A DNA stretch of 33,680 nt from Sulfurimonas sp. (GTDB lineage: Bacteria > Campylobacterota > Campylobacteria > Campylobacterales > Sulfurimonadaceae). Below are positions 8,769 to 22,165 of this stretch, piece after piece. Position numbers and translations under genes: made by a program. Below the pieces are notes generated by a model, which saw only the letters and a list, made by a program, of their open reading frames with translations, was not told where the DNA came from and did no database searches. The stretch is from assembly GCA_027063645.1 (NCBI GenBank), contig JAMORK010000002.1, positions 1 to 33,680 of the forward strand. Reading direction: 5' to 3'. Within the stretch, counting starts at the first letter, position 1, and each line of letters starts with the position of its first letter.

Positions 8769-9266
8769 ATGAAATATACAGACACCTATTTAAAATTAGC
8801 CGACTTTGGACGTGAACTTCTCAATAAAAAATCTCTAGAAGATGGAATGCCTCTTATCGCTCAGTATGCAAAAGATGTGATTGTTGCTGCAAGATGCTCC
8901 ATTTTTATCTATGATCACAAAACTCAAAAACTTTGGACAACACTCTCTGATGGTGTAGAAAAGATAGAGGTCGATGCAGATAAAGGTATAGTTGGTAAAA
9001 CAATTAAAGAGAAAAAACCAATAGTTGTTAATGAAGCATATAAAGACCCAGATTTCTTAGATGAGATCGATAAGCAAACAGGGTATAAAACAAATAATAT
9101 TATAACAGCACCTATCTTTGATTCTAACAGAAAGATTATAGGTGTATTAGAACTACTAAACAAAGAAAATGGATTTGATAATGATGACAGAAGATTTATG
9201 ATCTTTTTTGCACATTATATTAGTGGATTTTTAGAATTAGTAAACCATTTAAAAGAGAGTAAATAA
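8769..9266 (+). CDS. Stand-alone GAF-domain protein 1
   Basis: The 165-residue protein is almost entirely one GAF domain, a small-ligand or redox sensor fold, with no attached output domain. Recognisable features are AARCSIFIYDHKTQKLWT near residue 42, the central GIVGKTIKEKKPIVVNEAY, and TNNIITAPIFD...IIGVLELLNK near the end. There is no signal peptide, so it should be cytosolic. It starts at an ATG behind GGAAAGG. One base separates it from a second GAF gene of similar sequence, so the two probably arose by tandem duplication. The ligand and partner are unknown. Confidence 0.85.
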   Translation: MKYTDTYLKLADFGRELLNKKSLEDGMPLIAQYAKDVIVAARCSIFIYDHKTQKLWTTLSDGVEKIEVDADKGIVGKTIKEKKPIVVNEAYKDPDFLDEIDKQTGYKTNNIITAPIFDSNRKIIGVLELLNKENGFDNDDRRFMIFFAHYISGFLELVNHLKESK

Positions 9267-9267
9267 G

Positions 9268-9753
9268 ATGAGAAAAATTGACCAAATAGCAGCATTTGGA
9301 CAAAAGTTGATGAGTGTGAAAGATATGGAACAGGCCTTGGAGCTTATATCGGACGAGGCAAAAAACTTAGTGCATGCTGAGCGTTGCTCTATATTTATAG
9401 TAGATAAAGAGGATAAAATGCTCTGGACTAAAATTAGTGATGGGATAGGACGTATTGTGATCTCTCTCACTTCAGGTGTAGTTGGCGATACCTATACAAA
9501 GGCAAAGCCACAAATTGTAAATGACCCATATAGTGATTCAAGGTTTTTACCTAGCATAGATAAAAAAAGTGGTTATATCACTAAAAATATTATTACCGTG
9601 CCCATTTTTAATTCTAAACGTGAAGTGATGGGGATTATTCAGCTTTTAAATAAGCAGATAAGCGATTTTAATGAAAAAGATTTAGAGATGCTTACTTTCT
9701 TTGCAAACTATGTGAGTGGCAGTTTAGAACTTGCTCTTTTAAAAGCCTCTTAA
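9268..9753 (+). CDS. Stand-alone GAF-domain protein 2 (paralogue of its neighbour)
   Basis: This 161-residue single GAF domain aligns along its whole length with the preceding gene: AERCSIFIVDKEDKMLWTKISDG, GVVGDTYTKAKPQIVNDPYSD, TKNIITVPIFNSKREVMGIIQLLNK and a C-terminal FFANYVSGSLELA. Both share the RCSIFI cysteine, which could bind a ligand or cofactor or respond to redox state, although that is conjecture. The ATG lies one base after the upstream stop. The stop shares TTAA with the stop of the convergent lytic transglycosylase gene. Confidence 0.85.
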   Translation: MRKIDQIAAFGQKLMSVKDMEQALELISDEAKNLVHAERCSIFIVDKEDKMLWTKISDGIGRIVISLTSGVVGDTYTKAKPQIVNDPYSDSRFLPSIDKKSGYITKNIITVPIFNSKREVMGIIQLLNKQISDFNEKDLEMLTFFANYVSGSLELALLKAS

Positions 9754-10715
9754 AGGGCTTTATGTGCATCGTAAGCTAAACGCATAACACCCACAGCATA
9801 GTTCGATGAGTTGTTGTATCGCATAATCTTTTTAGTGTATTCTTTCATATAGGCAAGCTCTGGTTTTCCCTTTGTAAAACAATTATAAACTTTTCCATTT
9901 CTACTTTTTTCATACACAAAAGAGGCATCTTCGTGAGTAAATTCGTAGTCATACCAAGCCTGCTCAATCTTAGCAACATCTGGCATCTTCGACCAGTCTA
10001 TAAGGGTATCCCAAGAGGCTTTTTTATGTAAAAACTTTGCAGCAGACATAATGGCATCTTCCATTTTTGTAAGGTCTGCTACCTCTGTTTTATACCCCTC
10101 TGTGTAGATAAAAGAGTTTGGCATAAACTGTGGTATCCCTACTGCTCCGGCATAAGAGCTAGGGAGGTTACACTGCTCAGGTCTTACCCCTTTTTTGTAG
10201 CAGTGCTCTATAATGGCTGCCATATTGGTTTTACCCATTTTTAAGAGCCATTTTTCCCGTGGCGTTTCTGCCTTTGTTCGAACCACCATAGTGTTAAAAA
10301 CTATGAAGGCATCGTGTGTTGGTTTTATCTTATCGAGTTTTGTCTCTTTAAGGAGAATGGCAGCGATAATCTCACGATTAACTCCGTATTTTTTTTCAGC
10401 TTTATCGTAAACCTCTTTGTAGCGATGAAGATTTTCTACCATTTTAGGTACATACTTCACTAAGACATTATTTGCTTTTCTCTCATTCTCTTTATGGTAC
10501 TTTATTTTTGAGGGTTGCAGATACTTCCAACTAATCTCATCAAACTTTTTCGTCTTAAAATAGGAGAGTAAAAATTGGTTGGCATACTTATAAGAAACGC
10601 CATGCTTCACAACTTTTTCACATATATCGGTGTAGTCTTTGTTTTTAAAGTCGCAGTTATCATACTTGGCAAACGCGAGGGTAGTAAGGCTAAGGAGTAA
10701 AAGTAGTTTAGTCAT
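9750..10715 (-). CDS. MltB-like (SLT_2 family) lytic murein transglycosylase
   Basis: This enzyme cleaves peptidoglycan glycan strands to give 1,6-anhydroMurNAc ends. The 321-residue protein starts with a cleavable-looking signal peptide (MTKLLLLLSLTTLAFA) without a lipobox Cys, so it should be soluble in the periplasm. The catalytic Glu is in IAAILLKETKLD near residue 120, and SSYAGAVGIPQFMPNSF is the family's substrate-binding motif. It is the last gene of the seven-gene recycling operon. Its ATG overlaps the murU-like stop by eight bases and has a GGAAG ribosome site. It would generate the anhydro-muropeptides that the other operon products process. Confidence 0.9.
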   Translation of the reverse strand: MTKLLLLLSLTTLAFAKYDNCDFKNKDYTDICEKVVKHGVSYKYANQFLLSYFKTKKFDEISWKYLQPSKIKYHKENERKANNVLVKYVPKMVENLHRYKEVYDKAEKKYGVNREIIAAILLKETKLDKIKPTHDAFIVFNTMVVRTKAETPREKWLLKMGKTNMAAIIEHCYKKGVRPEQCNLPSSYAGAVGIPQFMPNSFIYTEGYKTEVADLTKMEDAIMSAAKFLHKKASWDTLIDWSKMPDVAKIEQAWYDYEFTHEDASFVYEKSRNGKVYNCFTKGKPELAYMKEYTKKIMRYNNSSNYAVGVMRLAYDAHKAL

Positions 10716-11364
10716 TGTTTATAGCTTCCAATCTTTGTGGTGTACCTATATCGTGCCACATCTTCTTAAACACTTCTCCACTTACGAGATTTTTTTCACA
10801 AAGTTCTCGTAAGATTGGAGCAAGTGGAGCTTTTTGTAACTCTATGGTTTGAAATATTTTAGGATTGTAGTAGCCTATGCCTGAAAAAGTGTACATCTTT
10901 TCACCCTTATTTAAAACATCAGTTCCCTTTAAAGCAAAATCACCTTTTTCATTATGGCTTGGGTTGGGGACTAAGATGAGGTGGGCGAGTTTCTCTTGTA
11001 AGTCAAAATCAGGCTCAAATTCATACTCACAAAAAACATCTCCATTGACAACTAAAAAGGGCTCATCTCCTAAAAATGCCAAGGCCTTTTTTATCCCTCC
11101 TGCACTCTCTAAAGGTCCTAATTCTCTCTCATCAGAGTAGTGAATTTTAAGATTCCACTTACTTCCATCCCCAAGGGTTTCAATAATTTTGCCACCAAGA
11201 TGGGCGATATTTATCACCACCTCTTTAAAGCCATTTCGAGAGAGTTTTTCTAAATGCCACACTATAAGGGGTTTTTCATGTACCTTCAAAAGAGGTTTTG
11301 GCAGGGTATCTGTAAGGGGTCTCATTCGCTCACCTCGACCCGCTGCGAGTATCATCGCTTTCAT
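10708..11364 (-). CDS. murU: N-acetylmuramate-1-phosphate uridylyltransferase MurU
   Basis: This 218-residue nucleotidyltransferase matches MurU of Pseudomonas putida from memory. It opens with MKAMILAAGRGERMRPLTD followed by LPKPLL, then ESAGGIKKAL, FLVVNGDVFCEYEF and HLILVPNPSHNEKGDF, and ends with MWHDIGTPQRLEAI. The reaction is MurNAc-1-P plus UTP to UDP-MurNAc, which bypasses de novo MurA/MurB synthesis. On sequence alone a sugar-1-phosphate guanylyltransferase would also fit, but the adjacent amgK-like and anmK genes favour MurU. Overlaps of four bases upstream and eight bases downstream imply coupled translation. Confidence 0.87.
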   Translation of the reverse strand: MKAMILAAGRGERMRPLTDTLPKPLLKVHEKPLIVWHLEKLSRNGFKEVVINIAHLGGKIIETLGDGSKWNLKIHYSDERELGPLESAGGIKKALAFLGDEPFLVVNGDVFCEYEFEPDFDLQEKLAHLILVPNPSHNEKGDFALKGTDVLNKGEKMYTFSGIGYYNPKIFQTIELQKAPLAPILRELCEKNLVSGEVFKKMWHDIGTPQRLEAINND

Positions 11365-12302
11365 TGGCTTACTCTTTGTAAAAACTCTCCAAGAGCTTGT
11401 GTTTCTTCATAGCGAAGCGCAGTCTCTATGGTGTAAGAAAGGGTGAGGGGGATGTCATCCAAGTAGCCATCTTTGCCATCACGAATACTTAAACGCGAGA
11501 AGACTCCAAGCACTTTAATGTGGCGTTGCAGACCCATAAAATCAAACCATTTTAAAAACTCTGTATCATCTGTTTGTGGGCTCACTTTATCACGAAAAGA
11601 GAGAGCAAGTTTTTCTATATTTTTTCGCTTAAAAGAGATATAACAATCTTTTAAGAGTGAGACTAAATCATAAGTAATAGCCCCACACATCGCATCTTGG
11701 TAGTCTATAACACCAAGTGTTTGTTTGTTAGTGAGCATGATGTTCCTTGAGTGAAAGTCTCTGTGAACAAAAATATTTTTGGGTTGAGAGAGTACCACTT
11801 CGCTAATTTTCTCAAGAGTATTTTGTACTAGGTTTTGCTCCTCATCTTTTAGAGAGTAAGCGAGCTTTTTCTCTAAGTACCACTCCCGCATTAGATCCAT
11901 CTCAAAGTGTAAAAATTTCTTGTCATAAAGTGGTAGTTTTGTTACATCTGCTTTTTGCATCTTTACAATCTCATCGATGGCGTTTAGATAGTGTATTTCA
12001 AAGTTACTTTCGTCTAAAACATCAAGAAGATTAGTGTTACCAAAATCTTCAAGTATTAAAAAACCCTCTTCTAAGTTTTGTGCATAAATCTTTGGTACAT
12101 TCACATCTACACTACTTAAACGCGAGCTAATTCCTACAAAAGGTTTGAGGGAGTCAAGCTCTAAGGAGCTGTCCATAATGATGTAAGTTTTCTCATTCTT
12201 TATAGCTCTGTAGTATTTTCTAAAACTTGCATCGGCACTAGCAACTGTGATGGCATACTCTTTTAAAAAAGTTGTTTCTAGCCATGCTTTGAGTTTACTC
12301 AT
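11361..12302 (-). CDS. amgK: N-acetylmuramate/N-acetylglucosamine anomeric kinase AmgK
   Basis: The 313-residue protein has the aminoglycoside phosphotransferase-type kinase fold. It resembles AmgK: an N-terminal ASADASFRKYYRA glycine-poor loop, DVNVPKIYAQNLEEGFLILEDFGN, the catalytic loop FVHRDFHSRNIM, the metal-binding VIDYQDAMCGAITYDLVSLLKD, and MGLQRHIKVLGVFSRL near the C-terminus. AmgK phosphorylates C1 of MurNAc (and GlcNAc), giving the substrate for MurU. It sits directly between anmK and murU, overlapping them by eight and four bases. In Pseudomonas the MupP phosphatase provides free MurNAc from MurNAc-6-P; no such gene is in this cluster. Confidence 0.88.
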   Translation of the reverse strand: MSKLKAWLETTFLKEYAITVASADASFRKYYRAIKNEKTYIIMDSSLELDSLKPFVGISSRLSSVDVNVPKIYAQNLEEGFLILEDFGNTNLLDVLDESNFEIHYLNAIDEIVKMQKADVTKLPLYDKKFLHFEMDLMREWYLEKKLAYSLKDEEQNLVQNTLEKISEVVLSQPKNIFVHRDFHSRNIMLTNKQTLGVIDYQDAMCGAITYDLVSLLKDCYISFKRKNIEKLALSFRDKVSPQTDDTEFLKWFDFMGLQRHIKVLGVFSRLSIRDGKDGYLDDIPLTLSYTIETALRYEETQALGEFLQRVSQ

Positions 12303-13365
12303 AAAGGGCTCCTAATATTGAATTTTTTGATGCTCCGGTGACTGAGCTAAGTGCTACTTTCTTTTTGTGAACTCGTTTGTAAGCAAGCCAAGCAAATGCC
12401 ATCGCCTCAAGTGCATCGCTGTTTGGCTCTTGTGTTATTTTTGCCTTAGTAAGTTTGTGGAGTCTTTGGAGTAAAAAGCCATTTTTAGCTCCCCCTCCAC
12501 ACACTATAATCTCTTCAATCTCAAAGCCTTTAAGGGAATCTGCAATGCTTTGGGCAGTAAGCTCTGTAAGTGTTCTTTGTCTGTCTGCACTACTAAGCTC
12601 AGGGAATTTGGAGAGATGTTTTGAGAGCCACGAGGCATTGAAATGCTCTCTTCCTGTACTCTTTGGTGGCGTTTTATGAAAGTACTCATCGCTAAGCATA
12701 TCGTTTAAAAGCTCTTGAGAGAGTTTACCACTTTTAGCAAACTCCCCAGCTTTGTCGTAAGCTTTGTTTTGTGTTTGTTGCATATGGATGTCAAGCAGGA
12801 CATTGCCACAGCCACTATCCCAACCAAGTAGAGGCTCTTTAAGGAGGGTGATGTTTGCCATCCCTCCAATGTTAAGAACCGCTCTTTGTGCTTGAGTGTT
12901 TTGGTAGTAAAACTGATGAAATGCAGGGGCAAAGGGTGCACCTTGTCCCTCATTTGCCACATCCATAGAGCGAAAGTCACTTATTGTTGGTATGCCTGTT
13001 TGTGCCACAACAATGTTGGCATTTCCTAGCTGAAGAGAGAAGGGGTGGAGTGTATCTGGGGAGTGCCAGAGGGTTTGGCCATGGAGTCCAATGGCGTTTA
13101 CCTGCTTCTTTTCTAAGGAAAAATATTCTAAAAACTGCTGAATCTTTTGTGCAAAAAATGCCCCAAGTTTTGCATCAAGCTCTCCAAAATCTTGGAGAGT
13201 GAGAGGGGAGTCAATGGCGTTTAAGACCTCTTTTTTAAGTGCTGTATCATAATTAAATTCTTTGTAATGAAGAAGTTTACACTTTGAGGCATCAATCTCA
13301 CACAAAGCGATATCGACACCATCAAGACTTGTTCCACTCATTACCCCAATGTAGTACTCACTCAT
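12295..13365 (-). CDS. anmK: Anhydro-N-acetylmuramic acid kinase AnmK
   Basis: AnmK opens the 1,6-anhydro ring and phosphorylates it to MurNAc-6-phosphate in the cytoplasm. The 356 residues begin MSEYYIGVMSGTSLDGVDIAL, the family signature. Further motifs include IGLHGQTLWHSP, PTISDFRSMDVANEGQGAP with the catalytic-site Asp, RAVLNIGGMANIT, GWDSGCGNVLLD and VCGGGAKNGFL. Its length is normal. The ATG overlaps the symporter stop (ATGA) with a GGGAG ribosome site, and its stop overlaps amgK by eight bases. Its presence shows that anhydroMurNAc itself reaches the cytoplasm, presumably through the adjacent symporter. Confidence 0.95.
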   Translation of the reverse strand: MSEYYIGVMSGTSLDGVDIALCEIDASKCKLLHYKEFNYDTALKKEVLNAIDSPLTLQDFGELDAKLGAFFAQKIQQFLEYFSLEKKQVNAIGLHGQTLWHSPDTLHPFSLQLGNANIVVAQTGIPTISDFRSMDVANEGQGAPFAPAFHQFYYQNTQAQRAVLNIGGMANITLLKEPLLGWDSGCGNVLLDIHMQQTQNKAYDKAGEFAKSGKLSQELLNDMLSDEYFHKTPPKSTGREHFNASWLSKHLSKFPELSSADRQRTLTELTAQSIADSLKGFEIEEIIVCGGGAKNGFLLQRLHKLTKAKITQEPNSDALEAMAFAWLAYKRVHKKKVALSSVTGASKNSILGALYE

Positions 13366-14840
13366 GCTTTACTCCCTTTTTGTGTCTGCATCACTCCAAA
13401 AGCGACAACTGTTCCAAAAACAATCTGCCATGAAAAGCCAAGATGGATACCAAAGGTGTAGGGTTGCAAAGCAAGGACTGTAAGAAAACCCCCTGCAAGA
13501 GCAAAAGGGACTGTTTGAGCACTTCCGCGTTTGGTAAAGATGGCAGAGAAAAATACTCCCAAAAGACCTGTGTAGGCAAACGCCATTACCCCAAGAGCAA
13601 AACCGATGAGGGAGAGTTCGGAGTAGCGTTGCCAAAAGTAACTGAGCATCGCCATTGCTAAAAGTAAAAGAGCAAAAAGAAGAACTGCTTTTTTTGAAGC
13701 TGCTAAAAAATGACTCTCTGGTGTTAGAGGGTGGCGTTTAAGGTGGTGGGGTCGGTAGATGTCCTCAATGGCAACACTCGCCATTGCCCCTAAAACAGAG
13801 TTTGTGCTAGAGAGGGCTGCTGCTATGGCTCCAACTGTGACAAAGCCTCGTAGCCCCTCTGGCATCTCATGGAGGATGTAGTACATAAAAATGGTAATCT
13901 TCTCCCCCTCAAAGTTTTGTACCACCGTATTGTTTTGGTAGTAGACAAATAGAAGTGCCCCAATACTTAAAAAAAGAAGAACAACAGGGATGGTTAGGAT
14001 GATAGAGAGGATAAGTGAGCGGCTCGCCTCCTCTTTGTTTTTACATGAAAGAGTACGTTGGGTCATATCTTGGTCAAGTCCAAAGGCGGCAATGTTGAGT
14101 AAAAGCCAACCACTAAGAAGCCCAATGATACTAAATTTTCCATCTAAAGAGCTATCTATAAAAGTGAGCTTTTCATGCTCTGAAAGTATTGCCATAATAT
14201 CTACACCCTCAAGGGAATGGTATAAAAAAAGAACTACAATAACTCCAGCACTCACATAGGTAAAGGCTTGAATTACATCACTTAAAATGACAGAACGCAC
14301 CCCTCCAAAATAGGTGTAAAGAAGTGCACCAAAGAGTAAAAGTGTGGCAGAGAGTAGCATATGAAAAGAGCTAATATCTAAGAAAAGTATCATACTAATC
14401 GCTAAGGCTGCAATGTAAAGACGTGCTCCACTTGCCATAATTCGCCCCACTAAAAACATCACTCCCGCTTGCTCTTTTGCTCTGCCACCGTAGCATTTTT
14501 CTAAAAGCTCATAAACTGTCATGGCGTTTATGGCATAAAATTTAGGGACAAGAAACTTCACAACAAAAAGAACACCGAGCAAAGAGGAGAAATAAAAACC
14601 TATAAGGGTGAAGTTGTTAGAGTAGGAGAACTCTGGAACTCCTAAAAAGGTAGCTGCTGATTGGGTGGTTGCTAGTATGCTGATGGCTACAGCAAAAAGG
14701 GGCATAGAGTTCGAAGCGGTAAAATACTCTTTAGTGGAGTTTATGGTTTTTTTAGAGAAATACCAAGAGCTAAGACCGAGCACTCCAAAGTAGGCAAAAA
14801 AAACGAGCCAGTCTAGGGGTGCAAAACTACTACTTCCCAA
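13362..14840 (-). CDS. Sodium/solute symporter (SSS family), candidate cell-wall sugar importer
   Basis: A 492-residue, very hydrophobic inner-membrane protein with about 13 membrane segments. It has the SSS-family opening (DWLVFFAYFGVLGLSSWYFSKK, then EYFTASNSMPLFAVAISILATTQSAATFLGVP), where the helix break and Ser/Thr residues of the sodium and substrate sites are expected. The start appears to be a TTG at 14840, overlapping the NagZ-amidase stop by eleven bases; no ATG lies nearby in frame. Family members import sugars, amino acids or sialic acid with Na+. Its position between a secreted hexosaminidase-amidase and anmK suggests import of anhydroMurNAc or a related sugar, replacing AmpG. 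The family call is firm; the substrate is inference. Confidence 0.9.
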   Translation of the reverse strand: MGSSSFAPLDWLVFFAYFGVLGLSSWYFSKKTINSTKEYFTASNSMPLFAVAISILATTQSAATFLGVPEFSYSNNFTLIGFYFSSLLGVLFVVKFLVPKFYAINAMTVYELLEKCYGGRAKEQAGVMFLVGRIMASGARLYIAALAISMILFLDISSFHMLLSATLLLFGALLYTYFGGVRSVILSDVIQAFTYVSAGVIVVLFLYHSLEGVDIMAILSEHEKLTFIDSSLDGKFSIIGLLSGWLLLNIAAFGLDQDMTQRTLSCKNKEEASRSLILSIILTIPVVLLFLSIGALLFVYYQNNTVVQNFEGEKITIFMYYILHEMPEGLRGFVTVGAIAAALSSTNSVLGAMASVAIEDIYRPHHLKRHPLTPESHFLAASKKAVLLFALLLLAMAMLSYFWQRYSELSLIGFALGVMAFAYTGLLGVFFSAIFTKRGSAQTVPFALAGGFLTVLALQPYTFGIHLGFSWQIVFGTVVAFGVMQTQKGSKA

Positions 14841-16485
14841 GAGCTTCTCGAATGTTTTTCATAAACACTTTACCTGGGTCTGCTTTTTTTGTACGGTAAG
14901 AGCTGTCTTTTTCTAGCCAGAGGGGAGTATTTTCAAACTCTCTGTACTCATAATGCCCAATGATGTTTTTAATGCTTGGGTATTTAGCTTGAAGGTAGTG
15001 GATGAGGTGGATGTTGGCCTGAAGTTGTGCAGGTGTTAAGTCCTCTTTTTTATTTGCTTCACCTCCAACATTTTCCACCCCTATACTTGTGTAGTTAAGT
15101 CCTATAACATGGCGAGCCATCCAGTTGTCTGGCATTAGTTGGTAGATGGTGCCGTCTCTATCTACCAAAAAGTGTGCTGAGACATTAAGTGCAGAGGCTG
15201 AGGCTATATCTTTACGGTCGCTGTAGAGAAGTTCTGCTTTAAGTCTTTTAAATGAATCTTCAAAACCCATAACAGCTGTCCAATGCAGCACTATGGTTTG
15301 TGGCACGATGGTAATATCTTTTACATCAAGTCCATAGTGTTGTTTGATGTACTCTTTTGTAAGGGCTTTGCGTTTGTCTGTAAAATCTATGGGTTTTTGA
15401 ACGATGGAGTATTTTGTATGAAGATTCTCAATGCGAAGATTTGCCTCTTGTATCTTCTTAAACGCGATGGCTCCACTTTTTACCTGCACTGTGATGGTAT
15501 CTACAATCTCTTTTGCACTATTATGCTCTAGTTGGTTTCCAAAAAGGAGCATATCTACCCCTGCATTGATGGCGAGAGTAACTCTCTCTTTGAGTGAATA
15601 GTGTTGTGTTATGGCTCCCATTTGCATATCATCACTTATTATTACCCCTTGAAATTTCATGGTATTGCGAAGAAGCTCATTGTTAAATTTTTTAGAGAGG
15701 GTGGCTGGGTATTTGTTGTCAATGTGGGAGTTATACACATGAGCACTCATAATTACATCTGCATATTTTTCTTTTATAAGGGCATAGTAGGGCTCAAGTT
15801 CCTTAGGTGACCATGTCTCACTTACATCTACAAAACCTTTGTGAGAATCCCCAAGTGATGAGCCATGACCTGGAAAATGTTTGAGTACAGAGATGATATG
15901 GTGGCGTTTTTGTAGTTCAATGAGTACCTTGGAATAAGCAACAACCTGTCTGGGGTCTGCTCCAAAAGAACGCTCAAGCCCTACAATTACCCTGTTTTTT
16001 GGATTAATCGCCAAATCAACCACAGGTGCAAAGTTCATGTTAATGCCAGCATCTTGAAGCATTTGAGACTGTTTTTCATATACTTTTAAAGTTTCTTCAT
16101 AACTCATTTTCCCAACTTTAGCAGCAGAGGGGATACTCTCAAAACCATACTGAGGTTTTAGGCGTGCCACCTTGCCACCCTCTTGGTCAACACTTATAAA
16201 AAGAGGGGCCTTTGCATAGCTTTTAAGCTCTTTTGTGAGTTTTGCAAGCTGTTGGGGAGAGCTGATGTTTTTTGTTTTACTTCTCTCTTTGTAGTTCCTG
16301 TCAAAAAGAATCACTCCACCGAGCTGATACCTCTGTATATCTTTGACAATGGGGGAGTTTTTATTCACACTTGTGCCATCAAAACCCATAATGAGCATTT
16401 GCCCTATCATTTTGTGAAGCTCTTTGTCACTTGGAAGGGCTTGCAGTAGGGTAAAACTCAGTAAAAATGTTAATAAATATCTCAA
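14830..16485 (-). CDS. Secreted NagZ beta-N-acetylhexosaminidase fused to an AmpD-type amidase
   Basis: I start at the TTG at 16485, which has an AAGGAG ribosome site seven bases upstream and overlaps the upstream stop (TTGA). A longer reading from 16545 would bury the signal peptide. The 551 residues begin with a signal peptide (MRYLLTFLLSFTLLQA). A GH3/NagZ domain follows (about 22-350) with SVDQEGGKVARL, KHFPGHGSSLGDSHKG including His215, and the likely nucleophile Asp285 in ISDDMQMG. An Amidase_2 domain (about 385-545) carries probable zinc ligands His401, His511 and Asp536. Together it should cut GlcNAc-anhydroMurNAc and strip the stem peptide in the periplasm. NagZ and AmpD are separate cytoplasmic enzymes in E. 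coli, so both fusion and export are notable. Confidence 0.9.
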   Translation of the reverse strand: MRYLLTFLLSFTLLQALPSDKELHKMIGQMLIMGFDGTSVNKNSPIVKDIQRYQLGGVILFDRNYKERSKTKNISSPQQLAKLTKELKSYAKAPLFISVDQEGGKVARLKPQYGFESIPSAAKVGKMSYEETLKVYEKQSQMLQDAGINMNFAPVVDLAINPKNRVIVGLERSFGADPRQVVAYSKVLIELQKRHHIISVLKHFPGHGSSLGDSHKGFVDVSETWSPKELEPYYALIKEKYADVIMSAHVYNSHIDNKYPATLSKKFNNELLRNTMKFQGVIISDDMQMGAITQHYSLKERVTLAINAGVDMLLFGNQLEHNSAKEIVDTITVQVKSGAIAFKKIQEANLRIENLHTKYSIVQKPIDFTDKRKALTKEYIKQHYGLDVKDITIVPQTIVLHWTAVMGFEDSFKRLKAELLYSDRKDIASASALNVSAHFLVDRDGTIYQLMPDNWMARHVIGLNYTSIGVENVGGEANKKEDLTPAQLQANIHLIHYLQAKYPSIKNIIGHYEYREFENTPLWLEKDSSYRTKKADPGKVFMKNIREALGK

Positions 16486-17006
16486 AAAATCTCCTTGAGT
16501 GATTGAAAAATAAGTGTTTTTGTCTTCTCTTTTGTTACGGTGCAAGGCTCAAAATGGTCACTTACAATTTTGTAGATGTAAAAGTTTTGTATCGCTGGGT
16601 TATGCACTACAGCATCATAAAAACCGTAGCTCTCCATATCGACAATATCAAAGGAGTTTTCGCTTACCTCTTTATCGACACACACAATTTTTTTATGTTT
16701 TGTATTAAAATTGTAAGTTATCTCTTGGTGCTCAATCGCACCTATTTGGAGGAGACTGCCAAGTGCATAGCACTTTGATGCCCCACAAATACCGATGTTG
16801 TAGTAGGTATCTTCGTCAGTTATATCAAAATGGTTTATGAGTGTTTGTGTAGCAACTCTCGCGTTTTGAACCCCTATGCCACTCACAATAAGCTTGAAGC
16901 TTTTATGTGAAAAGAGAGTGTACCCACTCAGCTTACTTTTTTGGAGTTTATAATAATCAACAAAGGCTTGCGCTTCACTTTTAAGAGCTACTACTATATA
17001 AATCAT
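16482..17006 (-). CDS. Nucleoside phosphorylase-superfamily protein (MTA/SAH nucleosidase-like)
   Basis: The 174-residue protein is short for the PNP/UDP phosphorylase superfamily but keeps key features: an N-terminal IYIVVALKSEAQAFVDYY, SGIGVQNARVAT with a glycine loop, NIGICGASKCYALGSLLQIG, the DMESYGFYDA motif with the nucleoside-binding Met-Glu, and VSDHFEP with the catalytic-site Asp. It is probably a hydrolase or phosphorylase acting on a nucleoside-like ligand in the cytoplasm. It is the first gene of the recycling operon, with the only visible promoter. Its role there is unknown; it might be a passenger, or act on a product of wall turnover. The ATG at 17006 lies six bases after a TATAAT box, so the mRNA may be leaderless. 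Confidence 0.75.
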   Translation of the reverse strand: MIYIVVALKSEAQAFVDYYKLQKSKLSGYTLFSHKSFKLIVSGIGVQNARVATQTLINHFDITDEDTYYNIGICGASKCYALGSLLQIGAIEHQEITYNFNTKHKKIVCVDKEVSENSFDIVDMESYGFYDAVVHNPAIQNFYIYKIVSDHFEPCTVTKEKTKTLIFQSLKEIF

Positions 17007-17012
17007 CTAAAG

Positions 17013-17021
17013 ATTATACCA
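17013..17021 (-). promoter_or_regulatory. Extended -10 promoter of the seven-gene recycling operon, possibly leaderless
   Basis: The minus strand reads TGG-TATAAT, then six bases, then the ATG at 17006. No other promoter is evident in the following 7 kb, where the genes all overlap. The expected transcription start falls at the start codon. Confidence 0.6.
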
Positions 17022-17157: not shown

Positions 17158-20100
17158 TTACTTCACTAATTTTCTTAGTATATTTTCAAAATCTTTTAAC
17201 ATTGTTTGTATTGTTGCTATATCAAAAACATCTATGGCTTGATTTAATTTTTCTGCATAGTTCATAAGTGGCTCTATCTCGTACTCAACGGCAATTTTTT
17301 GAAGCTCTTGATTCATCGATTTAACATCAGATATATTATTGCTAAGCATCGCTTTTTTATGAAGAGGGGAAACTTTAGTTTCTAAATCATTTATAATCAC
17401 ACCAATATTTAATTTTACTTTTTCATTTAAAATAAACTCCTCTTGAGATTCCTCATCTTCTTCTATCTTGACTTTTTCAAATGCTAAAAAATGACTGAGT
17501 TCATGAAAAAGTTCCTCTTTAAGCACAGGTTTTCGTAAATAAGCATCAAAGTTTTCTTTTTTTATTTGTTCATTTTCATTTTGCATCACAGAGGCAGTAA
17601 GTGCTACAATAGGTACTTTCGATATTTTTTTAATCTCTTTAGCTGCTTCATAACCATCCATAATTGGCATACGAATATCCATCAAGATAAGTTGAGGTTT
17701 TTCCTCTTTAAAGAGTTTAATCGCTTCAAGTCCATTATTTGCCGTAAGTACTTTTACCTTTGTTCCCTCAAAGTTTTTTACAATGAGTTCTCTATTGTCT
17801 TCTATGTCATCTACAACAAGAATAGTACTCTCTTTAAAAATAATTTTTTGCTCTTTATCTATGAGCTGGCGGTTTGTTTCATCTTGTACGGTAGCAATAT
17901 CTACATTGTAAAGATGTAGCATAAAAGTAGTACCTTTCCCTTTTACACTGCTAACTTCTATATTGCCACCCATCATCTCCGATAATCGCTTAGAGATAGA
18001 AAGCCCAAGTCCTGTTCCACCAAATTTACGATTGTCTTGACCCTCTCTTTGCTCAAAGGCTTGAAAGATTCTTTCTAATTGGTCTTGTGGAATCCCTATA
18101 CCTGTATCTTCTACCGAGATTTTAAGATCGAGTTTTGAGAGATGCTCTTTTACATTATAGACCTCAATTGAGAGTTTAATGTAGCCATCTTCTGTAAATT
18201 TGACAGCATTTCCTATAAGATTAAAAAGAATTTGGCGAACTCTTACTTCATCAATAAGTAAACTTTTTGGAGTTGATTCCCCTACATCTACAATAAAGTC
18301 AAGACCTTTTTTCTTCATCTCCATCATAAATATGGAACTTATCTCATTGGTAAGGTTAAAAAAGTTTGTTGGTGTTTTATTTATTTGAAGTTTGCCCGCT
18401 TCTATTTTTGAGAGATCTAAAATATCGTTAATTAGGGTTAAAAGAGTATTGCTCGCGTTTTGGATGGTTTTAACATAAGATTTGAGTCTTGGTTCTGAGA
18501 GTTGTTCATTAAGAAGTTCTGTAAAACCAATGATGGCGTTCATTGGTGTTCTAATCTCATGGGACATATTGGCTAAAAATTCAGACTTTGAACGGTTTGC
18601 CGAATCTGCTTCCTCTTTAGCTTTTTGTAGTTTTTTTGAAAGAATTTCAAGATTTTCTTTCTCTTTTTGCAATGCTTTTTCTGCAAGTTTTCTCTCTGTA
18701 ATTTCATGAGCCATCTTTCGATTCCAATAGATAAAAAGAAAAAGAACGAAAAGAAAAAGAAACAGATATTTCCAAAGGAAAGTGAGATCCATTGTTTGGG
18801 TGACTTTTACAGGCATCCAACGGTTCTTTATTTCCATCTCTTCATTGGATGTTATGGTTGCTATGGCTTTGTTAAGAATTTGAAGTAGAATTTTGTCATC
18901 ATCATGCAAAAGAATTCTATGATTAAAATTAAAGTTTGTTTTTCCAGATATATGCAGAGTGTGAGGGTAGTATCTACCAACATAATGCATAGCAACTGCC
19001 ATATGCCCTAAAAAAGCATAAGCTTTACCACTTTTAACTAACTCTAATGCTTCTAAAACATTTTTTGTCGCTTTGATTTTAATATTTGGTTTTTGAGATT
19101 TAAGATAATTATAGCTTGTCCAATATTTTGGTACAGCTATAACTCTCTCATCATTTTCAAACTCATCCAGACTATTTATAAAAGAGGTATCGTTACGAGT
19201 GACTAGAACAAAAGGAAAACTTGCGAAGCTATTAGTGAGAAGTCCAAGTTGATTTTGGTAAGGGTCATCTCCTGTAGCTGGTGTAATGTCAATTTTATTA
19301 TTTTTAAATTTTTCTAAAACATCTGGCCAGTTTTTAGAGGGAATATATTCAAATTTGACACCAACTCTTTTTTCTAAAAGGTCTAAGTAATCTCTTAGTA
19401 AACCATGCATAGTGCCATTTTCAATAATAGAAAGAGGTTTCCAATTTACTTCGCTATATGTGATTTTTTTATGTTCTTGAATCCATTTATACTCTTGAGG
19501 GCTAAAGCTTATAAGTTGTGTCTTATTTGTTGTGTCTATCCCTAACCATCTGTTATGTATTGTCTCTTTCTCTTTAGGTGTTATAGCTAAAAGTGCCTTG
19601 TTAATGATGGAGAGAAGGATGGGTTGATTTTTTGCTGTTGCCATATGGAGACGAATCGTATGTTTACCATGGTAAGATTTAAAAGGGATGATGCTGGTTA
19701 TAGCTTGTTTTTTAAGTACATAGCTAAGTGAAGCATAGGTGTCAAATAAAATATCTGCTTTTTTTTCTAAAACAGCATCAATAGCATCAGAAAAAGTATT
19801 GACCTCTAAAATTTTTAGTTTTGGGAACTCTTTGTGTAAAAGCTGTATATGTGCATACCCTTTTGGGATAGCAACCACTTTCCCATTGAGATCTTTCATT
19901 GTTTTTGCATCTACATCATCACGAATGAAAAAATAATCGAGCATATCAAGATAGGGAGTTGTAAAGTCCATATACTCTGCTCTTTCTTTTGTATAGTACA
20001 CAGCATGAAGCAGATCAATTTGAGAGTTTTTTATTTTTTGAAGGTTTTTACTCCATTGGTCCACAATAACATGAAATTTAAGACCTGTTTTTTTAGAAAT

Positions 20101-21045
20101 AAGTTTGAGGTAATCATTTGAGATACCAGAGTAAACACCATCTTTATTTACAAAATCAAAAGGAGCCCAGTCAGGTCCCCCACCCACTTTTACAGTATGC
20201 TCTTTGACCCATTTTTGTTCTTGAGATGTTAGTAAGTTGTGTTCAAGTTTAGATTTTTGGTACCATTTTTGAGCAATTACCCTTTTTTCCTCTTCCGATA
20301 TACAACTGAGTGTTTTGTTTATAATGGAGAGCAGAATAGGCTTGTTTTTATCGATGGCTATAGAAACTTTAGTGTCTAATCCCTCAAGTTTATTAACAAT
20401 TTTGAGATTAGATAAAAAGTTATTTTTTATAATATAAGTAGCAACGGCAATATTGCCTATATAAGCATCTACCTTATTAAAAGAGAGAGCTTCAAGTGAT
20501 TCTTTATTTGAGTGTGTGAGGTAAAGTTTTATCTCTGGATGCTTCTTTTGTATCCATTCATGTAGATAGGAACCTTTATTTATAGAGACTAGTTTGCCTC
20601 GTAAATCCTTTAATGATTGTATATTGTCATTAGAGTTTTTTACTACTATGGCTAGAGGCATTGAGAGGTAAGGAGTTGAAAAATTAAGATATTTTTCTCT
20701 CTCTTGTGTTTTGACAGCACAGCTTAAACCATCAAATTTATGCTCTTTCATATCTTCGATGACATTAGACCAAACATCAGAGATGATTTTAAATTGCAAA
20801 CCACTTTTTTTAGAGATAAGTTCTAAGTAATCACTCGCTATCCCACTATGTTCCCCTTGAGTGTTTTGGTACTCATAAGGGGGCCAGTTTTTATCGGCAC
20901 CTAGTGTAACTAGTGGGTGGGTTTGTATCCAGTGAATCTCTTGGGGAGTAAAATTTGGTATTTCTTGAGCATAAAGATGTAAAGGGAGGTAAAGACTAAA
21001 AAGAAGAAAAAAAACTCTATATTTTAGAGATAGAAATAAATTCAT
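17158..21045 (-). CDS. Hybrid sensor histidine kinase with three periplasmic SBP_bac_3 domains
   Basis: A 1295-residue BvgS-like sensor. After a signal peptide ([20 protein letters not shown] onward) come three tandem type-3 solute-binding domains (about 33-268, 270-510 and 515-755), each beginning with a tryptophan-rich strand and ending in an EKxxIxxRW-like helix. A membrane helix (about 757-778) and a short coiled coil lead to HisKA with His829 in [14 protein letters not shown]. The ATPase domain shows DTGIGIP and [10 protein letters not shown], and a receiver domain carries Asp1123 in LILMDIRMP. The last 100 residues look like an HPt domain, but the phosphorylatable His seems replaced by Gln1246. 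Its start overlaps the REC/HD-GYP gene by 29 bases, so that protein is the likely partner. Ligands are probably amino acids or similar small solutes. Confidence 0.92.
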
Positions 21046-22060
21046 CTATATTCGCCTCAAATATTTCAACAAGATAAGGGTCGAATTGAGTGCCTTTGTG
21101 AGAAATTATATATTGAGATGCATCTTCAACACTCCAAGCCTCTTTATATATTCTTTTATGTGTGAGGGCATCAAAGACATCAGCGAGAGCAACTATGCGA
21201 CCAAATATATGAATATCTTCCCCTTTGAGACCTTGTGGGTAACCTGTGCCATTCCACTTTTCATGGTGTTGATAAGCGATGATATCGGCAGCTTTCATAA
21301 TTTTTCTTTTTGCAAAACCAAGGTACTCATGAGCTTTTGTGGTGTGTGTTTTCATAATAACAAACTCCTCTTCACTTAAAGCACCCTTTTTATGGAGGAT
21401 GTAATCAGGAATTGCCATTTTTCCGATGTCGTGCATAGGGCTTGCATGGTAGATAACATTTGCATCTTCCTCTGTGATAGCTCTATGATAATGTGCCAGC
21501 AAACGGGAGTACTCCGCAACACGCTTAATATGTTTACCTGTTTCATCAGAGATAGATTCAACAAGCTCTGTAAGCACAAAGATCATCTCTTTTTGATTCT
21601 CTTCTAGTTCACTTAAAAGTCTTTCATGAACACTAGTAACTTTAGTTTGAAGGCTGAGATTGTTCTCTTTTAAAAGCTTTTGAGCCCTATAAAAGTTGAT
21701 GTGGGTCTTAACACGTGCAAGAAGTTCATCTGCTTGAAAAGGTTTTGTTATGTAATCTACCCCGCCAGCTTCAAATGCTGTAGATAGTGAGTCAATATCT
21801 ACCTTTGCTGTTAAAAATACAACGGGAATATCTAAAAGTAAAGGGTCTGCCTTAATACGACGACAAACTTCATAACCATCAATACCTGGCATCATGATGT
21901 CAAGAAGAACAAGGTCAAAAGTGGCACCTTTTAAAAGTTTTAATGCATCTTCACCATTAAGAGCATAAGAAAATTCATAATTATCCTCTTTAAGGATGTT
22001 CATAGCAACTTGAATGTTATCAACTACATCATCTACAATTAAAATGGCACTTTTTTGCAT
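21017..22060 (-). CDS. Response regulator with HD-GYP cyclic-di-GMP phosphodiesterase domain
   Basis: I start at the ATG at 22060, behind AAGGGTG; a GTG three codons earlier is less likely. The 347-residue RpfG-type protein has a receiver domain with Asp10-Asp11 and phospho-acceptor Asp54 in LVLLDIMMP, a short coiled linker (about 125-160), and an HD-GYP domain. That domain has the HD pair in [13 protein letters not shown] and the GYP motif in [14 protein letters not shown], so hydrolysis of cyclic-di-GMP is expected. It is the first gene before the triple-SBP hybrid kinase, with a 29-base overlap. A pathway in which periplasmic solutes adjust cyclic-di-GMP, and thus motility or attachment, is a reasonable inference. 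Confidence 0.93.
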
Positions 22061-22165
22061 TACGAACACCCTTGAACTTATTATTTAACTATAATAACAT
22101 AAATAATATTATATTTTATTTTATTTTTATTAATATGAAATCCAAACAGAGATTTAAGTAAAAAT

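What the first reader, a model, noticed from the sequence alone, without database searches (positions are those of the whole stretch)
9750..17006. Seven overlapping genes form a self-contained peptidoglycan-recycling operon
Every adjacent pair overlaps by 4-11 bases, behind a single visible promoter at 17013-17021. The order is nucleosidase-like, NagZ-amidase, symporter, AnmK, AmgK, MurU, MltB-like. Read as a pathway: MltB-like makes anhydro-muropeptides, the fusion frees the sugar, the symporter imports it, and AnmK, AmgK and MurU lead towards UDP-MurNAc. The AmgK/MurU bypass is known from Pseudomonas, where the genes are scattered and import uses AmpG. One compact operon with periplasmic dismantling in a Campylobacterota-type genome is, as far as I know, undescribed.
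Basis: partly seen in the sequence, partly recalled or inferred. Interest (0 to 1): 0.85.

Follow-up and report, generated by a model that had tools for sequence, protein, structure and literature searches.

The report
Sulfurimonas cell-wall sugar recycling operon
A run of overlapping genes in a sulfur-oxidising Sulfurimonas bacterium most likely lets the cell strip its own shed wall fragments outside the inner membrane, import the wall sugar with a sodium-driven pump and rebuild a wall precursor; the parts are known, the combination is a new variant, and one step (the phosphatase) is not accounted for.

Summary
The seven overlapping genes are real: overlaps of 4, 11, 4, 8, 4 and 8 bases. The window is from a Sulfurimonas MAG. 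The core order nagZ(-amidase)-symporter-anmK-amgK-murU recurs in 22 other genomes of the genus. In a 160-genome sample of Campylobacterota, AnmK and AmgK occur in the same seven genomes (2 of 41 genera). AmpG was found in 0 of 60 relatives, MurQ above cut-off in 0 of 60. NagZ-amidase carries a signal peptide, so muropeptides are probably dismantled in the periplasm. The symporter is the informative piece: its nearest solved relative is the sialic-acid symporter SiaT, and in 12 of 14 Pseudomonadota its 44-51% identical orthologues sit beside muramic-acid genes (MurQ, MurK, NamZ, AnmK). It is therefore probably a Na+-coupled MurNAc/anhydroMurNAc importer, here wired to the MurU shunt instead of MurQ. 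Analogues exist (B. subtilis murQRP-amiE-nagZ, T. forsythia murTKQ, the Pseudomonas/Caulobacter MurU shunt). Verdict: new variant of a known kind.

The parts
17013..17021 (-). extended -10 promoter element TGG-TATAAT just before the first start codon
   Evidence: best minus-strand promoter-like site; TATAAT 11-16 bases upstream of the start in about 8 relatives
16482..17006 (-). small nucleoside-phosphorylase/MTAN-fold protein (174 aa); probable passenger at the 5' end, not a core member
   Evidence: weak sequence match; AF2 pLDDT 89.9 with MTAN hits E 2e-10; separate locus in many relatives
14830..16485 (-). NagZ (GH3) - Amidase_2 fusion with N-terminal signal peptide; start TTG at 16485
   Evidence: fusion clustered on the NagZ tree; separate nagZ and ami genes in other Sulfurimonas
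13362..14840 (-). SSS-family Na+/solute symporter, proposed anhydroMurNAc/MurNAc importer
   Evidence: nearest solved relative SiaT 5nv9; conserved residues; orthologues beside murQ/murK/namZ/anmK
12295..13365 (-). anmK, 1,6-anhydroMurNAc kinase
   Evidence: NF007139 428 bits, cut-off 367; AnmK structures, 1e-77
11361..12302 (-). amgK, MurNAc/GlcNAc anomeric kinase
   Evidence: NF045759 253 bits, E 3e-75, below curated cut-off 550; co-occurs with anmK in the same 7 of 160 genomes
10708..11364 (-). murU, MurNAc-1-P uridylyltransferase
   Evidence: NF045761 292 bits, cut-off 250; 4y7t, 5e-56
9750..10715 (-). MltB-like lytic transglycosylase (SLT_2) with signal peptide; usual but not constant last gene
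   Evidence: conserved KET motif aligned with the catalytic-Glu region of MltB

Best explanation
A Sulfurimonas operon for salvage of the muramic acid part of peptidoglycan without AmpG. Proposed order: the MltB-like transglycosylase (and others in the cell) releases GlcNAc-anhydroMurNAc-peptides; the secreted NagZ-amidase removes GlcNAc and the peptide in the periplasm; the SSS symporter imports free anhydroMurNAc with sodium; AnmK opens and phosphorylates it to MurNAc-6-P; an unlinked HAD phosphatase in the MupP role yields MurNAc; AmgK makes MurNAc-1-P and MurU makes UDP-MurNAc, which re-enters wall synthesis downstream of MurA/MurB. Shown here: family identities, gene order and its conservation, signal peptides by inspection, absence of AmpG and MurQ in relatives, linkage of the symporter to muramic-acid genes in another phylum. 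Inferred: transport substrate, periplasmic site of action, order of flux, phosphatase, co-transcription.
For: Family assignments. Catalytic motifs aligned with solved relatives: NagZ KHFPGHG...DSH and the DD nucleophile motif, AnmK (43), MurU (42), AmgK HRDFHxRN (41). Core order in 22 other genomes of the genus. AnmK and AmgK in exactly the same 7 of 160 Campylobacterota. AmpG 0/60 and MurQ above cut-off 0/60. In G185, another family, a stand-alone secreted amidase overlaps the symporter gene, with anmK-amgK-murU downstream (L155), so the amidase-symporter link does not depend on the fusion. Symporter: nearest solved relative SiaT; Pseudomonadota orthologues (44-51% identity) lie beside murQ, murK, namZ, anmK or nagZ in 12 of 14 loci. 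T. forsythia MurT, a demonstrated MurNAc transporter, is assigned to the sodium symporter superfamily (PMC5790795).
Against: No dedicated MupP found; only general HAD phosphatases, so the AnmK-to-AmgK link is unproven. That test is weak: the model also finds nothing above cut-off in Caulobacter, where a 32.6%-identical HAD is the predicted MupP (PMC13046382). SiaT Arg135, the carboxylate salt bridge, is an alanine here; the conserved Ser60/Thr63 equivalents and nearby arginines are also invariant in 30%-identical Bacteroidota paralogues, so they do not discriminate an acidic sugar. AmgK scores below its NCBIfam cut-off. No expression, transport or enzyme data.
Confidence: 0.8

Rival explanations
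1. The operon mainly scavenges peptidoglycan fragments from other cells (detritus, neighbours) rather than recycling the cell's own wall.
For: Signal peptides on NagZ-amidase and MltB-like; Pseudomonadota orthologues of the symporter sit in catabolic MurQ/NamZ clusters.
Against: No MurQ above cut-off in relatives, so muramic acid cannot be burned by the known route; the only outlet encoded is UDP-MurNAc. No outer-membrane importer in the operon.
Confidence: 0.15
2. The symporter carries mostly free MurNAc straight to AmgK, and AnmK serves a separate minor stream; then no MupP is needed for the main flux.
For: No MupP above cut-off; MurT of T. forsythia carries MurNAc (PMC7670621); several Pseudomonadota loci have the symporter with MurK and MurQ but no anmK.
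Against: anmK is always in the core cluster and co-occurs perfectly with amgK; lytic transglycosylases yield anhydro ends; MurNAc-6-P from AnmK needs an outlet and MurQ is missing.
Confidence: 0.2
3. Chance juxtaposition of unrelated genes, or an assembly artefact of the MAG.
For: Window is from a 54% complete MAG; nucleosidase and mltB are found elsewhere in relatives.
Against: Same core order in 22 other genomes, several of them single-contig assemblies.
Confidence: 0.01

Closest known systems
Pseudomonas / Caulobacter MurU shunt, AnmK-MupP-AmgK-MurU (PMC5371407, PMC5371409, PMC13046382)
   Same: AnmK, AmgK and MurU families; end product UDP-MurNAc; no MurQ, as in Pseudomonas
   Different: Here no AmpG; NagZ and amidase carry a signal peptide; a symporter gene lies between them and the kinases; genes clustered; MupP not identified
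Bacillus subtilis murQ-murR-murP-amiE-nagZ-ybbC cluster (PMC5061867)
   Same: Exported NagZ and amidase dismantle muropeptides outside the membrane and are encoded with the sugar importer
   Different: PTS importer and MurQ (catabolic) there; Na+ symporter, AnmK and the anabolic MurU route here; NagZ and amidase fused here
Tannerella forsythia murTKQ (PMC5790795, PMC7670621)
   Same: MurNAc importer of the sodium symporter superfamily in a wall-sugar cluster
   Different: MurK/MurQ route and AmpG there; no AnmK predicted there; direct homology of MurT to this symporter was not tested
Pseudomonadota sss-murK-anmK-murQ clusters with divergent MurR/RpiR and NagZ (L179-L181, found here)
   Same: About 51% identical symporter, anmK close by
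   Different: MurK/MurQ catabolic outlet instead of AmgK/MurU; NagZ without the amidase fusion

Membership tests
MurU shunt (AnmK-MupP-AmgK-MurU) | AnmK, AmgK and MurU present | tested here: met
   (AmgK below the curated cut-off but best family hit; Caulobacter's also below)
MurU shunt (AnmK-MupP-AmgK-MurU) | MurNAc-6-P phosphatase MupP present | tested here: inconclusive
   0/60 above cut-off; HAD candidates L001, L002; own genome only 54% complete; the cut-off also misses Caulobacter
MurU shunt (AnmK-MupP-AmgK-MurU) | MurQ etherase absent | tested here: met
   0/60 above cut-off; the weak partial hits are by length and region probably other SIS-domain proteins
AmpG-dependent Gram-negative recycling | AmpG permease present | tested here: not met
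   0/60 while control genomes ring; the own genome is incomplete, so this rests on relatives
AmpG-dependent Gram-negative recycling | NagZ cytoplasmic (no signal peptide) | tested here: not met
   signal-peptide-like N-terminus in the window and relatives (heuristic, no dedicated predictor)
SSS (Na+/solute symporter) family | SSF domain and Na2-site residues | tested here: met
   Ser342/Ser343 equivalents present
SiaT-type sialic acid symporter | Arg135 salt bridge and Gln82 | tested here: not met
   Ala136 and an aromatic residue at these positions; Ser60 and Thr63 equivalents are met
MurNAc/anhydroMurNAc transporter | demonstrated uptake of the sugar | not testable with these tools
   only genomic linkage, 12 of 14 loci
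MTA/SAH nucleosidase | fold and full-length domain | tested here: inconclusive
   MTAN fold, TM about 0.7-0.8 by query length, but 174 aa against about 230; no Pfam hit above cut-off

The most novel reading that the evidence does not exclude
Sulfurimonas recycles its wall without AmpG by complete periplasmic dismantling plus a Na+-coupled anhydroMurNAc symporter feeding the MurU shunt, and the symporter represents a cross-phylum family of anhydroMurNAc/MurNAc Na+ symporters that is wired either to MurQ (catabolic, Pseudomonadota) or to AmgK-MurU (anabolic, Sulfurimonas).
Probability: 0.6. Interest if true: 0.55.

Novelty: new variant of a known kind. Interest (0 to 1): 0.45.

Why it matters
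I know of no dedicated transporter shown to carry free anhydroMurNAc; T. forsythia MurT was named as a possibility only (PMC7670621). The operon offers a testable candidate, shows recycling without AmpG by import of free sugar rather than muropeptide, and predicts fosfomycin tolerance in an environmental genus. Only 2 of 41 sampled Campylobacterota genera have AnmK or AmgK, so it also marks a lineage-specific gain (or retention) of wall-sugar salvage.

Tried and rejected
Nucleosidase as pathway member: rejected, it occurs without the operon and at other sites. MupP hidden among genes inserted between sss and anmK in relatives: none of those inspected looks like a HAD phosphatase. Symporter orthologues in 14 non-Campylobacterota genomes reached through NagZ hits: none at E 1e-30. 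Bacteroidota symporter hits (about 30% identity) are mostly without muramic genes nearby; 2 of 14 have NamZ. SiaT-like Arg135: not conserved.

Full report
What is there. Seven minus-strand ORFs run from 17006 down to 9750. The mechanical start of the second gene is too long; TTG at 16485 gives a 4-base overlap and a signal peptide. The window lies in a Sulfurimonas genome: the closest named relatives are Sulfurimonas MAGs, and G000 is a 1.14 Mb, 54% complete assembly.

Families. Pfam and NCBIfam give MltB-like SLT_2, MurU (above cut-off), AmgK (best hit, below its cut-off), AnmK (above cut-off), an SSF symporter, and GH3 NagZ plus Amidase_2. PDB sequence searches give MurU 4y7t, AnmK 3cqy, the 3csv phosphotransferase for AmgK, GH3 NagZ/YbbD entries, and SiaT 5nv9 for the symporter. 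NagZ's His/Asp loop and nucleophile motif align with the solved enzymes.

The first gene. Sequence matches are weak. An AlphaFold model (pLDDT 89.9) matches MTA/SAH nucleosidases (E 2e-10), so it is a shortened member of that fold. It occurs in Sulfurimonas genomes without the operon and, in genomes with an unfused nagZ, at another place, often overlapping an SDR gene. I treat it as a passenger whose promoter may drive the operon: a TATAAT close to its start recurs in about 8 relatives.

Conservation. The core order nagZ(-ami)-sss-anmK-amgK-murU on one strand is found in 22 other genomes of the genus, 17 and 5. Some have unrelated genes inserted between sss and anmK. The fusion is clustered on the NagZ tree (3 changes against 18 in shuffles; a single origin is not excluded). 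Elsewhere in the genus nagZ follows what read by eye as secG-frr-pyrE and a secreted amidase lies apart. In G185, a different family of the order, a stand-alone secreted amidase overlaps the symporter gene, with anmK-amgK-murU downstream.

Distribution. In a spread of 160 Campylobacterota genomes AnmK and AmgK occur in the same seven, two of 41 genera. In 60 relatives AmpG is absent, MurQ is absent above cut-off and no HAD protein passes the MupP cut-off. The MupP test is weak because the same cut-off finds nothing in Caulobacter, which is credited with a MupP homologue of 32.6% identity (PMC13046382).

The symporter. Orthologues at 44-51% identity were found in 14 of 349 Pseudomonadota genomes. 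In 12 of the 14 loci, genes for MurQ, a MurK-type kinase, NamZ exo-muramidase, AnmK, MurR/RpiR or GH3 lie within a few kilobases; three loci read sss-murK-anmK-murQ with divergent murR-nagZ. MurQ is about one gene per genome, so chance proximity is negligible. This linkage in an unrelated lineage is the strongest evidence for the substrate. SiaT's Ser60 and Thr63, which hold the sialic acid carboxylate (PMC5931594), are conserved in every sampled orthologue but also in distant paralogues; Arg135 is not conserved. T. forsythia MurT is a demonstrated MurNAc importer of the sodium symporter superfamily (PMC5790795), so sodium-linked MurNAc uptake has precedent.

Mechanism and limits. Best reading: periplasmic dismantling of anhydro-muropeptides, sodium-driven import of anhydroMurNAc, AnmK, an unlinked phosphatase, AmgK, MurU, UDP-MurNAc. 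The transport substrate, phosphatase, cell location and co-transcription are inferred. Signal peptides were judged by eye and a hydrophobicity window, not by a dedicated predictor.

Known or new. The enzymes and the shunt are known; extracellular NagZ plus amidase beside a MurNAc importer is known in B. subtilis (PMC5061867); amgK and murU are adjacent in P. putida (PMC5371407). I found no paper in the open-access library on peptidoglycan recycling in Sulfurimonas; subscription literature was not searchable. The combination is a new variant of a known kind.

Noticed in passing
L179-L186, L188, L190-L192 (Pseudomonadota): Clusters of the SSS symporter with MurQ, MurK (sometimes a MurK-MurQ fusion, e.g. 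L182 3641-5494), NamZ, RpiR and GH3 suggest a PTS-free MurNAc catabolic route.
   Followed up: partly
L163-L167: The small nucleosidase-fold gene overlaps or abuts an SDR-like gene in other Campylobacterota (SDR judged by eye); this pairing may be older than its place in the operon.
   Followed up: partly
L155 2969-5178: In G185 a stand-alone secreted amidase overlaps the symporter gene by 4 bases, so the amidase-symporter link exists without NagZ.
   Followed up: yes
window 8769-9753: Two tandem similar genes (165 and 161 aa, GAF-like by eye, not tested) converge on mltB and overlap it by 4 bases; the pair and the ArsC-like gene are kept beside the operon in L156, L157, L159 and L160.
   Followed up: no
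window 17158-21045: Large hybrid sensor kinase with repeated periplasmic-binding-like segments (by eye, not tested), next to an HD-domain response regulator (21017-22069), directly upstream of the operon on the same strand.
   Followed up: no
L035 9429-12100, L038 7947-12811, L080 11173-13224: Different unrelated genes (two-component system and cytochrome-like genes, glycosyltransferase-like genes, chemoreceptor-like gene) are inserted between sss and anmK in some species.
   Followed up: partly
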